Source: Clostridiales bacterium
GTDB taxonomy: Bacteria; Bacillota; Clostridia; Christensenellales; Pumilibacteraceae
Direction of reading: 5' to 3'
DNA length: 36,148 nt
NCBI GenBank assembly: GCA_015055705.1
Contig: SVHR01000004.1
Coordinates: forward strand, 1 to 36,148
Of the stretch, positions 565 to 16,169 are shown one piece after another; positions within the stretch are counted from its first letter, which is position 1; every line of letters starts with the position of its first letter. Both the position numbers and the translations under genes were made by a program. Under the pieces are notes generated by a model. The model did no database searches. It was not told where the DNA came from and saw only the letters and a program-made list of their open reading frames with translations.

Positions 565-1386
565 CTACTTGTTTTCGCTTTGTTGATTGCGGTATTTAAG
601 TGGTGATACACCCTCGTTCTTTTTGAACACTCTGCAAAAGTATGCTGTGTCGGTATAGCCGCACCTTTGGGCTACCTCGCCGATGGTAAGACCCGTGGTG
701 GATAGGTACTGCTTTGCGCGCTCCATTCGCTTGTTAAGCAAATATTTGATGGGCGGAATGCCAAGGCGCTCCTTAAACAGATGGGTAAGGTAGAACTTGT
801 TAAGACCTAAAAGCTTGCATACGTCCTCGATATTTTCGATTGTAAGGTAGTTTTTGTCAAAGTATTCCTTGGCGTCGAGGTACGCCTTGTTGTGTGAGTA
901 TAGGCGCTCGAAGTCGGGTGCGGCAAGTCGTAGGGTGGATATAAGCAAAACCCTGACAAGGTCGTCCTGAATGATTTTGCTGCCCATGCCGCGCGTTTTT
1001 TCTTCCTTTACAAGAGCCTCAAAGTACGACTTGAACAGCTGCCAATCCTCGCCCGTATTAAGCATGCAGTACGGCTCGTTGATTACCACGTCCGGCTCCA
1101 AATCGCCCAGCACCACGCCCGAAAAGCCGAGGTGATACACCTGCACGTCGGGCGAGTCGAACACGTACTCCGAGTGCGCAACGTCCTTGCTGCAAATGAT
1201 TATCGTGTTCTCCTTTATGGGGTAGAGGTAGCCGTCAAGCTCAAACCTGCCGCCACCGCCGACGACAAAAATCAGCTCGGGATGAGGGTGCGAGTGCATT
1301 TCCTTATGCGCCCCGTCGTTGCGGATATACTCAAGAACGGGTCGCTGTTTTATAATATTCTTTTTGGAGTAATACTCGTTCACCAT
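565..1386 (-). CDS. AraC family transcriptional regulator with cupin sensor domain
   Basis: Predicted DNA-binding regulator of 273 aa. Residues about 27-90 form an AraC-type cupin with the His-rich H-S-H-P-H-P-E pattern and a G-G-x-G-x-F-x-L strand, a likely small-molecule or metal-binding pocket. Residues about 167-268 are the two-helix-turn-helix AraC domain, including the conserved second helix region IGEVAQRCGYTDTAYFCRVFKK and the P-L-K-Y-R ending. The ATG shares one base with the stop codon of the upstream parA-like gene (TAATG), so the two are probably translated together. The ligand is not evident; proteins of this shape often control sugar-utilisation genes, but no such gene is adjacent. 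Confidence 0.9.
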   Translation of the reverse strand: MVNEYYSKKNIIKQRPVLEYIRNDGAHKEMHSHPHPELIFVVGGGGRFELDGYLYPIKENTIIICSKDVAHSEYVFDSPDVQVYHLGFSGVVLGDLEPDVVINEPYCMLNTGEDWQLFKSYFEALVKEEKTRGMGSKIIQDDLVRVLLISTLRLAAPDFERLYSHNKAYLDAKEYFDKNYLTIENIEDVCKLLGLNKFYLTHLFKERLGIPPIKYLLNKRMERAKQYLSTTGLTIGEVAQRCGYTDTAYFCRVFKKNEGVSPLKYRNQQSENK

Positions 1387-2216
1387 TATTGTTGCGGTTT
1401 TACTGCCTTGCGTTTAAGGCTTGCCATGCTGGTGATTTTTGTGTAGTTGTAGTCCTTGTTGCGTTCGAGGAACTCTTCAGCTAGCGCCTTGTAGGCGATA
1501 GAGCCCGAGCAACGCGGCTCGAAGTGCATAATCGGTTTGCCGTAGCTGGGCGCCTCGCCAAGCTTGATGTTGCGCGGAATGCGGTGCGTATAAACGCTCT
1601 TACCAAAGAACTTGATAATTTCGGACGTTACGCTTGCCACAAGATTGCTTCTGCCGTCATACATAGTAAGCAGAACGCCCTCGACCTCGAGAGTGGGGTT
1701 AAGATGCTTCTTCGCAAGGCGAATGGTGTTCATCAGCTGGCTAAGACCCTCGAGGGCAAAGAACTCGCCCTGAATGGGGATAAGTATGCTGTCTGCCGCC
1801 GTAAGTGCGTTTACCGTAAGGAGCGCAAGCGAGGGCGGACAGTCGATAAATATGTAGTCGTAATTGTTTTTTAGCGGCTGTAGAATGGAGCGCAAAACCT
1901 TTTCGCGGTTAGGAACCTTGATAAGCTCGATTTCCGCGCCTGCAAGGTCGATGTTGGACGGAATCAGATCAAGTCCCTCGACACAGGTCTTTACGGTAGC
2001 GTCCTTTGCCGAGCATTCGCCGACAAGAACGTTGTAGATGGACGCGCGAAGCTCCTTTTTTTCAACGCCGATACCGCTGGTGCAGTTGCCTTGCGGGTCG
2101 ATATCAATCATAAGGGTGCGCTTGCCCATAGCCGCAACAAAGCTGCTAAGATTGATACAGGTTGTGGTTTTTCCTACGCCACCTTTTTGGTTGGCTACAG
2201 CAATGATTTTAGACAT
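1386..2216 (-). CDS. ParA/Soj-type partition ATPase, without a neighbouring parB
   Basis: 276 aa if translation begins at the ATG at 2216, where a GAGG Shine-Dalgarno sits 5-6 bases upstream; a longer in-frame start at 2276 would overlap the promoter -35. The protein opens with the deviant Walker A motif K-G-G-V-G-K-T-T (residues 11-18), then D-P-Q-G-N and D-C-P-P-S-L, all typical of ParA/Soj ATPases that form ATP-dependent dimers on DNA. Length and C-terminal region (the F-x-R-N...GEAPSYGKP stretch) match chromosomal Soj. The usual partner parB/spo0J is absent; instead the stop overlaps the start of an AraC-type gene. It could be the chromosomal Soj displaced from the origin region, or an orphan ParA that positions some other cargo. 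Confidence 0.92.
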   Translation of the reverse strand: MSKIIAVANQKGGVGKTTTCINLSSFVAAMGKRTLMIDIDPQGNCTSGIGVEKKELRASIYNVLVGECSAKDATVKTCVEGLDLIPSNIDLAGAEIELIKVPNREKVLRSILQPLKNNYDYIFIDCPPSLALLTVNALTAADSILIPIQGEFFALEGLSQLMNTIRLAKKHLNPTLEVEGVLLTMYDGRSNLVASVTSEIIKFFGKSVYTHRIPRNIKLGEAPSYGKPIMHFEPRCSGSIAYKALAEEFLERNKDYNYTKITSMASLKRKAVKPQQ

Positions 2217-13423: not shown

Positions 13424-13536
13424 TGAGGATGGCAGGAGTCGAACCTGCGACCTATGGCTTATCTAGCAAATAAAGTTGCGGTGAAAGGCTTTGTCAAGTC
13501 TCCGTTTCATTGCTCTACCAGCTGAGCTACATCCTC
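13424..13536 (-). ncRNA. tRNA-like RNA with expanded anticodon region (candidate Y RNA-like)
   Basis: On the minus strand a 113-nt RNA has acceptor stem GAGGATG/CATCCTC, canonical D arm GCTC-AGCTGGTA-GAGC, variable AGGTC and canonical T arm GCAGG-TTCGACT-CCTGC with discriminator A. Between the D arm and variable segment are 57 nt instead of 17. I find no anticodon stem-loop. Instead that segment can form an irregular hairpin (TGAAA..GG..CTT with AAGCCTTTCA around GACA) and a second GCAA/TTGC hairpin. The next bases read CCT, not CCA, and then T5. The promoter puts the 5' end at base 1. It may be a Y RNA-like partner of the DUF2828 protein; a tRNA with a short intron or a decayed tRNA are alternatives. 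Confidence 0.75.
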
Positions 13537-13543
13537 GTTTTTT

Positions 13544-13572
13544 ATTTTACCACTAAAATTTTCGCTTGTCAA
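13544..13572 (-). promoter_or_regulatory. Strong promoter of the tRNA-like RNA (and perhaps DUF2828)
   Basis: On the minus strand, TTGACA (13567-13572), 17 bases, TAAAAT (13544-13549). Seven bases separate the -10 from the first base of the acceptor stem, so the start site coincides with the RNA 5' end. Confidence 0.85.
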
Positions 13573-13603
13573 GAGGATAGAGAAAAATTATACCATATAT
13601 TAC

Positions 13604-13634
13604 AAAAGGCCGCTTCTTGCAGGAGCGGCCTTTT
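13604..13634 (-). terminator. Intrinsic terminator of nhaC-type gene
   Basis: AAAAGGCCGCT (13604-13614) pairs with AGCGGCCTTTT (13624-13634) around a 9-base loop, 31 bases after the stop of the antiporter gene. Confidence 0.88.
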
Positions 13635-15320: not shown

Positions 15321-16169
15321 TTATCTGCGCTTTTGGAATTTGCCGTCCTTTTTGTGCACGACAAGGTTAAGCTCTTGATTTTGGCTAAGCTCTTGCGCGA
15401 TTTGAAGCGCTTCCTTTTTTGTATGAACTCTGCGGATTACACGCTTGGCGTTGTCCTTGCGAACCTCCCACGTTCTTGTTTCGCTGTCGTATACCACGCG
15501 GTAGCTTACCGGTCTGCTCTTTTGCGGCAAAATCTCATCACCGTCTTGCTGATTTTCGTCCGCTTGCTCCAAAGCGTCGGTGGTAGATTCGGGTTGTTCT
15601 TTTTGGTCGTCTGCTTTTTGAGTTTGCTCTGTACTAGGCTCAGTCTGCTGAGGTGCAGCTTGCTCGGCAATAGGCTCAGGCTGCTCAGGTGCAGCTTGCT
15701 CGGCAATAGGCTCAGTCTGCGCGGATGCAGCTTGCGCGGCAGTAGGCTCCTCGTCGGAAGGGCTTTCAATTTCCGTTATTGCTTGCTCTAAGGGCTGCTC
15801 CTTGGGCTCCACCTCGTTAGGCAGCGATTCGCACTCTGCTTTCTCCTGAGCTTGGTCAGGCTTGGCACCGTCGTCTTGTTGACACGCCTCATCATTCTTT
15901 TTGGTGGAAAGTGCAACACTTTGGGTAGAAGCTTTTTCTGCTTGGTCGTTTGAGGTTGCCTGTGCGCTAAGCGTCGCCTTTTGCTTTGCGGCTTGGTCAA
16001 CCGTGCGGTCAATTTCGTCCGAAACGTAGGTAAGCGGCTTTTTTGACCTTTTTACGGCAATGGCGATTATAATTGCTATAACAATTAGAACAAGGGCGGA
16101 AACGCCTATCACGATATAAGTAAGGTATTCTTGCAAAAAATTTAAAAAAGCATTAGATAATAAAAACAT
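15321..16169 (-). CDS. Membrane-anchored protein with Gln/Glu/Ala/Pro repeats and DUF2188 domain
   Basis: 282 aa. A single transmembrane segment (about 16-39) is followed by a basic stop-transfer R-S-K-K-P, a 175-residue low-complexity linker rich in Gln, Glu, Ala and Pro, and a folded C-terminal domain (about 222-282) of DUF2188 type (YRVVYDSETRTWEVRKDNAKRVIRRVHTK-EAL). The linker contains three 12-aa repeats of the pattern AAxxQxEPxxEQ, mirrored in the DNA. With its few positive charges ahead of the TM, the C-terminal domain probably faces the cytoplasm. AGGAG lies upstream of the ATG and the promoter is consensus. Role unknown; such linkers act as spacers from the membrane. Confidence 0.8.
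   Translation of the reverse strand: MFLLSNAFLNFLQEYLTYIVIGVSALVLIVIAIIIAIAVKRSKKPLTYVSDEIDRTVDQAAKQKATLSAQATSNDQAEKASTQSVALSTKKNDEACQQDDGAKPDQAQEKAECESLPNEVEPKEQPLEQAITEIESPSDEEPTAAQAASAQTEPIAEQAAPEQPEPIAEQAAPQQTEPSTEQTQKADDQKEQPESTTDALEQADENQQDGDEILPQKSRPVSYRVVYDSETRTWEVRKDNAKRVIRRVHTKKEALQIAQELSQNQELNLVVHKKDGKFQKRR
15637..15750 (-). repeat. Three tandem 36-bp coding repeats
   Basis: The start of each unit (GCAGCT on the plus strand) recurs at 15655, 15691 and 15727, exactly 36 bases apart. The first two units are nearly identical, the third diverged. They encode the 12-aa AAxxQxEPxxEQ repeats. Confidence 0.85.

What the first reader, a model, noticed from the sequence alone, without database searches (positions are those of the whole stretch)
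13424..13536. tRNA-like RNA whose anticodon arm is replaced by ~57 nt: candidate Y RNA-type tRNA mimic
Seen: a complete acceptor stem, D arm and T arm with all usual conserved bases, but 57 nt where 17 are normal, folding into two hairpins and no recognisable anticodon loop. The encoded 3' end is A-CCT followed by T5, while the neighbouring tRNA-Thr encodes CCA. Known: YrlA-class bacterial Y RNAs carry tRNA-like D and T arms and sit next to rsr (Ro60 orthologue). Known bacterial tRNA introns are group I and far larger than 40 nt. Inference: this is a non-decoding tRNA mimic.
Basis: partly seen in the sequence, partly recalled or inferred. Interest (0 to 1): 0.88.

Follow-up and report, generated by a model that had tools for sequence, protein, structure and literature searches.

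The report
Split-anticodon tRNA mimic beside Ro60-like protein
A gut bacterium carries a small RNA shaped like a transfer RNA, with an extra 40-base piece inserted in its anticodon arm, next to a gene for a relative of the human lupus autoantigen Ro60; the same pairing of protein and tRNA-mimicking RNAs recurs in other gut bacteria and in many phages, so it looks like a widespread and differently wired version of the known Ro60-Y RNA particles.

Summary
The tRNA-like RNA at 13424-13536 (-) is real and conserved. The anticodon arm is not lost: a 5-bp stem and 7-nt loop are present, but the 5' stem strand is interrupted after nt 29 by a 40-nt module, a capped stem followed by ACCGCAA (consensus ACHGCAA). 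The neighbouring DUF2828 protein has a full-length Ro60 fold (TROVE plus vWA; Z 17 against about 10 for vWA-only chains), though the TROVE profile misses it. ACHGCAA lies within 400 nt upstream in 25 of 30 cellular DUF2828 loci (49 plus-strand, 0 minus-strand copies) and in tandem arrays in phages. Units pair the same module with a tRNA, a circularly permuted tRNA or an anticodon hairpin alone. Seven of 151 relatives carry the long form; all seven have DUF2828. Canonical YrlA RNAs near TROVE genes are circularly permuted tRNAs whose Ro stem attaches at the anticodon arm; the window RNA has the same parts with the ends at the acceptor stem. Best reading: a Y-RNA partner of a DUF2828 Ro60-like protein, not a decoding tRNA. 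Binding and effector are inferred. New variant of a known kind.

The parts
13424..13536 (-). Whole tRNA-like Y-RNA candidate, 113 nt
   Evidence: RF00005 53.5 bits; model R1 99.9 bits (high by construction, since the window RNA is in the model)
13544..13572 (-). Sigma-70-type promoter TTGACA-17-TAAAAT (11/12), ending 7 nt before the RNA 5' end
   Evidence: the homologue L006 has TTGACA...TACAAT and L007/L009 have TTGACA...TATAAT at the same place
13425..13431 (-). Acceptor stem 3' strand (5' strand at 13530-13536); discriminator A at 13424, no encoded CCA
   Evidence: acceptor pairs 99% standard over 28 homologues with double changes in all 7 pairs
13512..13527 (-). D arm
13508..13510 (-). Anticodon stem nt 27-29 (AUG), pairing with 41-43 (CAU, 13454-13456)
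13468..13507 (-). 40-nt inserted module between nt 29 and 30
   Evidence: removal lets ARAGORN call the rest a tRNA
13485..13502 (-). Capped stem of the module (GAGACUU-GACA-AAGCCUU, one A-C mismatch)
   Evidence: A2 columns 45-51 with 66-72: 91% paired, double changes in all 7 pairs
13476..13482 (-). Conserved motif ACCGCAA (family consensus ACHGCAA)
13454..13467 (-). Anticodon hairpin upper part: GC-(UAGAUAA)-GCCAU; loop 13459-13465, GAU-like but with A33
13432..13448 (-). T arm with UUCGACU loop
11840..13372 (-). DUF2828/DUF7788 gene, Ro60-like (TROVE fold plus vWA), starts 51 nt after the RNA
   Evidence: Pfam PF11443 4.6e-31, PF25043 3.4e-44; PHROG 850 RNA-binding protein 8e-133; fold matches

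Best explanation
The RNA is the Y-RNA-type partner of the adjacent DUF2828 protein, a Ro60-family ring protein too divergent for the TROVE profile. Its tRNA body (acceptor, D, T and anticodon arms) carries, within the 5' strand of the anticodon stem, a module (capped stem plus ACHGCAA) shared with the other RNAs of the family. Shown: anatomy, conservation, co-occurrence and the Ro60 fold. Inferred: the stem-ACHGCAA module is what the DUF2828 ring binds, and the tRNA-shaped part is the effector end that recruits tRNA-handling enzymes or a nuclease (as YrlA recruits PNPase) and/or gates the ring. It is probably transcribed from its own promoter, starting at or very near the mature 5' end. It does not decode: the anticodon stem is interrupted, U33 is A and no CCA is encoded. 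Relative to canonical YrlA it has the opposite connectivity: YrlA is a circularly permuted tRNA with its ends in the Ro stem, whereas here the ends are in the acceptor stem and the Ro stem is capped.
For: Full-length Ro60-family fold of the neighbour: 9kop Z 17.1 over 412 residues, phage phiLo Ro60 16.2, human Ro60 14.3, D. radiodurans Rsr 14.3; vWA-only chains start at about 10 (Foldseek E 1e-7). Of 151 relatives, 7 have the long RNA at 85 bits or more and all 7 have DUF2828; the next hits are 73-nt tRNAs at 65 bits or less. ACHGCAA within 400 nt upstream in 25 of 30 cellular DUF2828 loci, 49 plus versus 0 minus; 338 plus versus 31 minus in IMG/VR loci, counted over the whole loci; units beside the gene in most classified phages and both plasmids inspected, including mycobacteriophages called 'Ro-like'. 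Covariation: 93.7% of cells paired, 22 of 28 pairs with double changes, score 0.58 against 0.10-0.16 when slid. RNA has 112/113 identity and no substitution between sister genomes, while the RNA-gene spacer has 42/53. Canonical TROVE loci carry YrlA-like permuted tRNAs with a homologous layout, and YrlA model hits of 37-43 bits occur in DUF2828 phage loci with ACHGCAA units. Strong promoter 7 nt upstream.
Against: No expression or binding data for this organism. YrlA (RF02553) and TROVE (PF05731) models do not match. The window motif is ACCGCAA, a variant. The tRNA part is so well kept, including the anticodon arm in relatives, that an excised-module tRNA cannot be excluded outright. 5 of 30 cellular loci lack the motif, and two of them (L021, L022) carry a different, tmRNA-like RNA. 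The alignment used for counting was chosen by hand.
Confidence: 0.77

Rival explanations
1. The 40-nt module is an intron: it is excised and the exons joined, giving a working 73-nt tRNA, with the DUF2828 protein helping splicing or repair.
For: Removing the module restores a 5-bp anticodon stem and 7-nt loop; ARAGORN then of 28 as tRNAs. The insertion point is consistent (28/29 or 29/30). U33 is kept in 24 of 28.
Against: The same module also forms stand-alone hairpins with no tRNA exons around it, and in other phage RNAs it sits in the anticodon loop or the D loop, where excision leaves no usable anticodon. The window RNA has A33. Several homologues have A34 anticodons (AGA, AGG), 8-nt loops, or Ser anticodons without the long variable arm. 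CCA is encoded in 3 of 28 against 26 of 41 ordinary-length tRNA hits in the phage loci. Bacteria have no known tRNA splicing endonuclease (own knowledge).
Confidence: 0.08
2. A cis-acting leader: the tRNA-like element in the 5' region of the DUF2828 transcript autoregulates the gene by binding its own product.
For: Same strand, 51 nt before the start codon, and a promoter upstream of both.
Against: Units also lie in arrays downstream of the gene or up to about 2 kb upstream, with ordinary tRNAs between some of them. A T5 run directly follows the window RNA.
Confidence: 0.08
3. Decoy or sensor: in phages and in bacteria that took up the locus, DUF2828 particles display anticodon loops (Lys UUU and Asn GUU most often) to titrate or sense anticodon nucleases or to assist tRNA repair. 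This is a version of the best explanation that names the effector side.
For: 27 of 110 short open units carry a 5-bp/7-nt hairpin with an anticodon-like loop, against 1.6 expected and at most 7 in 200 dinucleotide shuffles; UUU and GUU dominate. Bacterial Ro60 sits in RNA-repair operons responding to damaged tRNAs (PMC7790460 abstract; PMC8394870). Phage tRNAs are reported to evade defences (PMC11555353 abstract).
Against: The window loop lacks U33 and is a single copy. Canonical YrlA RNAs in cellular TROVE loci also carry the hairpin, so it need not be a phage weapon. Whether the loops are cut was not testable.
Confidence: 0.2
4. A decaying ordinary tRNA gene hit by a random insertion.
For: No CCA and A33.
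Against: Conserved length, structure, motif and linkage in many genomes; compensatory changes; no substitutions while the spacer diverges.
Confidence: 0.01

Closest known systems
YrlA-class bacterial Y RNA (Rfam RF02553) with Rsr/TROVE protein
   Same: Encoded beside a Ro60-family gene; tRNA-like body with D and T arms; Ro-side stem attached at the anticodon-arm position of the tRNA body; anticodon-like hairpin next to the stem in several Bacillota YrlA
   Different: Ends are at the acceptor stem and the Ro stem is capped (circular permutant); motif ACHGCAA instead of UACUUCG; partner is DUF2828, not TROVE by profile; no YrlA model match
Phage 'Ro-like RNA binding protein' genes (mycobacteriophages, Listeria P100-like CKA15_055) and putative phage Y RNAs
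   Same: Same protein family and ACAGCAA units beside the gene; Y RNAs were proposed for mycobacteriophages and for a Listeria phage (PMC12282133)
   Different: In Listeria A511 and in mycobacteriophages the units are open hairpins, not tRNAs with a split anticodon stem; the abundant Listeria RNAs of that paper (CKA15_059-061) lie about 1 kb further upstream than the ACAGCAA units
Ordinary tRNA (RF00005)
   Same: Acceptor, D, T and anticodon arms, conserved loop bases
   Different: 40-nt insertion in the anticodon stem, A33, no CCA
tmRNA tRNA-like domain
   Same: A tRNA mimic with non-decoding function
   Different: No mRNA-like domain or pseudoknots; normal D arm

Membership tests
YrlA / bacterial Y RNA | Gene next to a Ro60-family protein gene | tested here: met
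   DUF2828 with full-length Ro60 fold 51 nt downstream
YrlA / bacterial Y RNA | tRNA-like domain with D and T arms | tested here: met
YrlA / bacterial Y RNA | Ro-binding stem formed by the RNA's own 5' and 3' ends | tested here: not met
   The ends form the acceptor stem; the module stem is internal and capped
YrlA / bacterial Y RNA | Match to RF02553 and the UACUUCG motif seen in Bacillota YrlA | tested here: not met
   No match at E 5; ACCGCAA instead
YrlA / bacterial Y RNA | Physical binding to the Ro60-family protein | not testable with these tools
   needs pull-down or EMSA
Ro60 family (for DUF2828) | HEAT-repeat TROVE ring plus vWA domain fold | tested here: met
   Z 17.1 over model residues 29-503 against 9kop, 14.3 against 2nvo and 9nen
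Ro60 family (for DUF2828) | Pfam TROVE (PF05731) match | tested here: not met
   No hit in the genome at E 10; control Deinobacterium positive
Ro60 family (for DUF2828) | MIDAS motif DxSxS in vWA | tested here: met
   CDGSYSM at 295-301; D296, S298, S300 invariant in 13 homologues
Decoding tRNA | Uninterrupted anticodon arm with U33 | tested here: not met
   Split after nt 29, A33; ARAGORN makes no call
Decoding tRNA | Aminoacylated CCA end in vivo | not testable with these tools
   Gene lacks CCA, but CCA could be added after transcription
Group I intron-containing tRNA | Self-splicing intron of over 200 nt in the anticodon loop | tested here: not met
   40 nt, in the anticodon stem; no group I intron match in the Rfam scans

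The most novel reading that the evidence does not exclude
DUF2828 particles are a second Ro60-Y RNA lineage, spread by phages, whose RNAs are interchangeable assemblies of one protein-binding module with different tRNA mimics (whole tRNAs, permuted tRNAs, bare anticodon hairpins). They act as decoys or sensors in the contest over tRNA cleavage, and the two wirings arose by circular permutation of one RNA.
Probability: 0.22. Interest if true: 0.9.

Novelty: new variant of a known kind. Interest (0 to 1): 0.72.

Why it matters
It identifies a sequence signature (stem-ACHGCAA) and a protein family (DUF2828, 679 phage records) for Ro60-type particles that the TROVE and YrlA models miss in this genome. 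It shows that the same Y RNA layout exists in two circularly permuted forms. The recurring anticodon hairpins give a direct, testable hint of what these RNAs mimic tRNA for, a question still open for bacterial Ro60.

Tried and rejected
Decay of a tRNA gene: rejected by conservation and covariation. YrlA membership: no model match. A TROVE gene elsewhere in the genome: none, but the assembly is only 76% complete. Listeria phage transcript data as proof of expression: the abundant RNAs CKA15_059-061 are not the ACAGCAA units, so it was dropped. PDB sequence search with the DUF2828 profile found nothing useful. PADLOC found no match for DUF2828. The key primary papers on bacterial Y RNAs (Chen 2014, Wang 2018, Sim 2018 and 2020) are not in the library, so it could not be checked whether a capped-stem, open-acceptor Y RNA or ACAGCAA units were already described. 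An ACAGCAA upstream of one TROVE gene (L165) proved accidental; that locus has UACUUCG.

Full report
Observation. On the minus strand, 13536-13424, the window encodes a 113-nt RNA that Rfam's tRNA model matches with 53.5 bits (E 6e-9) and that ARAGORN does not call. Acceptor stem, D arm and T arm are complete. Between nt 26 and the variable loop lie 57 nt instead of 17. The gene encodes discriminator A, then CC and T5, not CCA. A TTGACA-17-TAAAAT promoter ends 7 nt before the RNA. The DUF2828/DUF7788 gene starts 51 nt after it on the same strand.

Correction. The anticodon arm is not lost. Nucleotides 27-29 (AUG) and 30-31 (GC) pair with 39-43 (GCCAU) around a 7-nt loop UAGAUAA; a 40-nt module separates nt 29 from nt 30. 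In 20 of 28 homologues the split stem pairs 5/5, most often split at 28/29. ARAGORN calls none of the 28 as they stand and all 28 once the module is left out. In the window the loop has A33, which ordinary decoding tRNAs do not (own knowledge).

Relatives. DUF2828 homologues were found in 12 of 151 related genomes, 22 of 391 class members including weak matches, 679 phage records and at least 462 places in IMG/VR. The long tRNA-like RNA stands just upstream in L006/L018, L007, L009, L010, L011, L019 (two copies) and L020. A covariance model built from 28 such RNAs (R1) finds seven relatives at 85 bits or more, all with DUF2828, and below that only 73-nt tRNAs at 65 bits or less. The set covaries: 93.7% of cells paired, 22 of 28 pairs with changes on both sides, covariation score 0.58 against 0.10-0.16 with slid partners; the capped stem alone has double changes in all seven pairs. 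Between the window and its sister genome the RNA has no substitution in 113 nt, while the short spacer to the gene has 5 substitutions and 6 gap columns in 53.

The shared module. Sequences upstream of more distant DUF2828 genes showed a constant ACAGCAA. In IMG/VR loci the motif is on the gene's strand 338 to 31, counted over the whole loci, and piles up right before and after the gene. In 30 cellular loci, 25 have it within 400 nt upstream, 49 plus and 0 minus. Two forms exist. In the open form the unit is a hairpin AAGRYGC-NN-ACAGCAA...GCRYCUUG whose ends are the stem. In the capped form the same two strands are joined the other way round by a short loop (CUUG-loop-AAG) and the module sits inside a tRNA. 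ACAGCAA units lie beside the gene in Listeria, mycobacterial, Felix-like, Campylobacter, Staphylococcus and Enterococcus phages and in two plasmids; the evidence in Vibrio phage phi-pp2 is weak.

tRNA content. Of 110 short open units, 27 carry a 5-bp, 7-nt hairpin with an anticodon-like loop (NUNNNRA), against 1.6 expected (maximum 7) in dinucleotide shuffles; UUU (Lys) and GUU (Asn) are commonest. Other phage RNAs carry the module within the anticodon loop, and one in the D loop. Some DUF2828 phage units (L094, L111 twice) read as circularly permuted tRNAs, and YrlA (RF02553) hits of 37-43 bits occur in four such loci (L094, L111, L112, L113).

The protein. The AlphaFold2 model of the window protein (mean pLDDT 78, pTM 0.68) matches the Ro60 family over both domains: 9kop Z 17.1 (412 residues), Ro60 of Thermus phage phiLo 16.2, human Ro60 14.3, D. 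radiodurans Rsr 14.3; vWA-only chains begin at about 10. The MIDAS DxSxS is invariant. The TROVE profile itself does not match. PHROG 850 calls the family RNA-binding protein, and mycobacteriophage annotators call it Ro-like.

Comparison with YrlA. TROVE matches in Bacillota (9 of 398 genomes) are in most cases accompanied by YrlA-like RNAs (28-40 bits, below the gathering score) with a UACUUCG motif. Read in order these are motif, anticodon-like hairpin, T arm, acceptor stem closed by a loop, D arm, then the other stem strand; rotated, they read as tRNAs. The window RNA has the same parts with the cut in the acceptor stem and the Ro-side stem capped. It is therefore filed as Y-RNA-like and not as a YrlA member: two defining features, the end-formed stem and the family model and motif, were tested and not met.

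Mechanism. Shown: anatomy, conservation, linkage and fold. Inferred: the stem-ACHGCAA module binds the DUF2828 ring; the tRNA-shaped end presents a tRNA surface to an effector, as YrlA does for PNPase (PMC8394870). A decoding role is unlikely: A33 here, A34 anticodons and Ser anticodons without a long variable arm in relatives, and CCA in 3 of 28 against 26 of 41 ordinary-length tRNA hits in the phage loci. The intron reading is the main rival and needs RNA data.

Limits. No expression data were found for these units; the abundant Listeria phage RNAs in PMC12282133 map elsewhere, though that paper's HHpred result independently points to Rsr, and it found the protein in virions. The primary Y RNA papers were not readable, so priority for parts of this cannot be settled.

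Noticed in passing
L021:2651-2732 and L022:2615-2696: An 82-nt RNA upstream of two DUF2828 paralogues of one genome scores above the gathering threshold of the tmRNA model with no mRNA-like domain, has a CCA end and (by eye) a G3-U70-type pair; these two loci lack ACHGCAA but have a perfect AAGGRCAU-AUGYCUUG inverted repeat just after it.
   Followed up: partly
L090:2150-2267: A tRNA-like RNA with the stem-ACAGCAA module inserted in the D loop instead of the anticodon arm.
   Followed up: partly
L091:1343-1458, L085:1257-1370, L087:697-809, L078:1646-1761: A second class of insert-bearing tRNA-like RNAs with an intact 5-bp anticodon stem and the module in the loop, often followed by a UGGGGA-like element.
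   Followed up: partly
L011:1283-1354 (+) and 1369-1440 (-): Two Gut-1 RNA matches in inverted orientation between the tRNA-like RNA and the DUF2828 gene.
   Followed up: no
L157:2110-2420 (Listeria phage cka15): CKA15_059-061, reported as the most abundant phage transcripts and probably non-coding, lie about 1 kb upstream of the ACAGCAA units next to the DUF2828 gene; nature unknown.
   Followed up: partly
PMC12282133, CKA15_055: The Listeria phage DUF2828 protein was detected in purified virions (20 peptides, 57% coverage), so the Ro-like protein may be delivered into the host.
   Followed up: no
window 15321-16169 (-): Protein with C-terminal DUF2188 matching the PADLOC candidate defence family PDC-S16.
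   Followed up: no
window 13600-13632 (-): GC-rich inverted repeat AAAGGCCGCT...AGCGGCCTTT between the Na+/H+ antiporter gene and the RNA promoter, by eye a terminator that would isolate the RNA's transcription unit.
   Followed up: no
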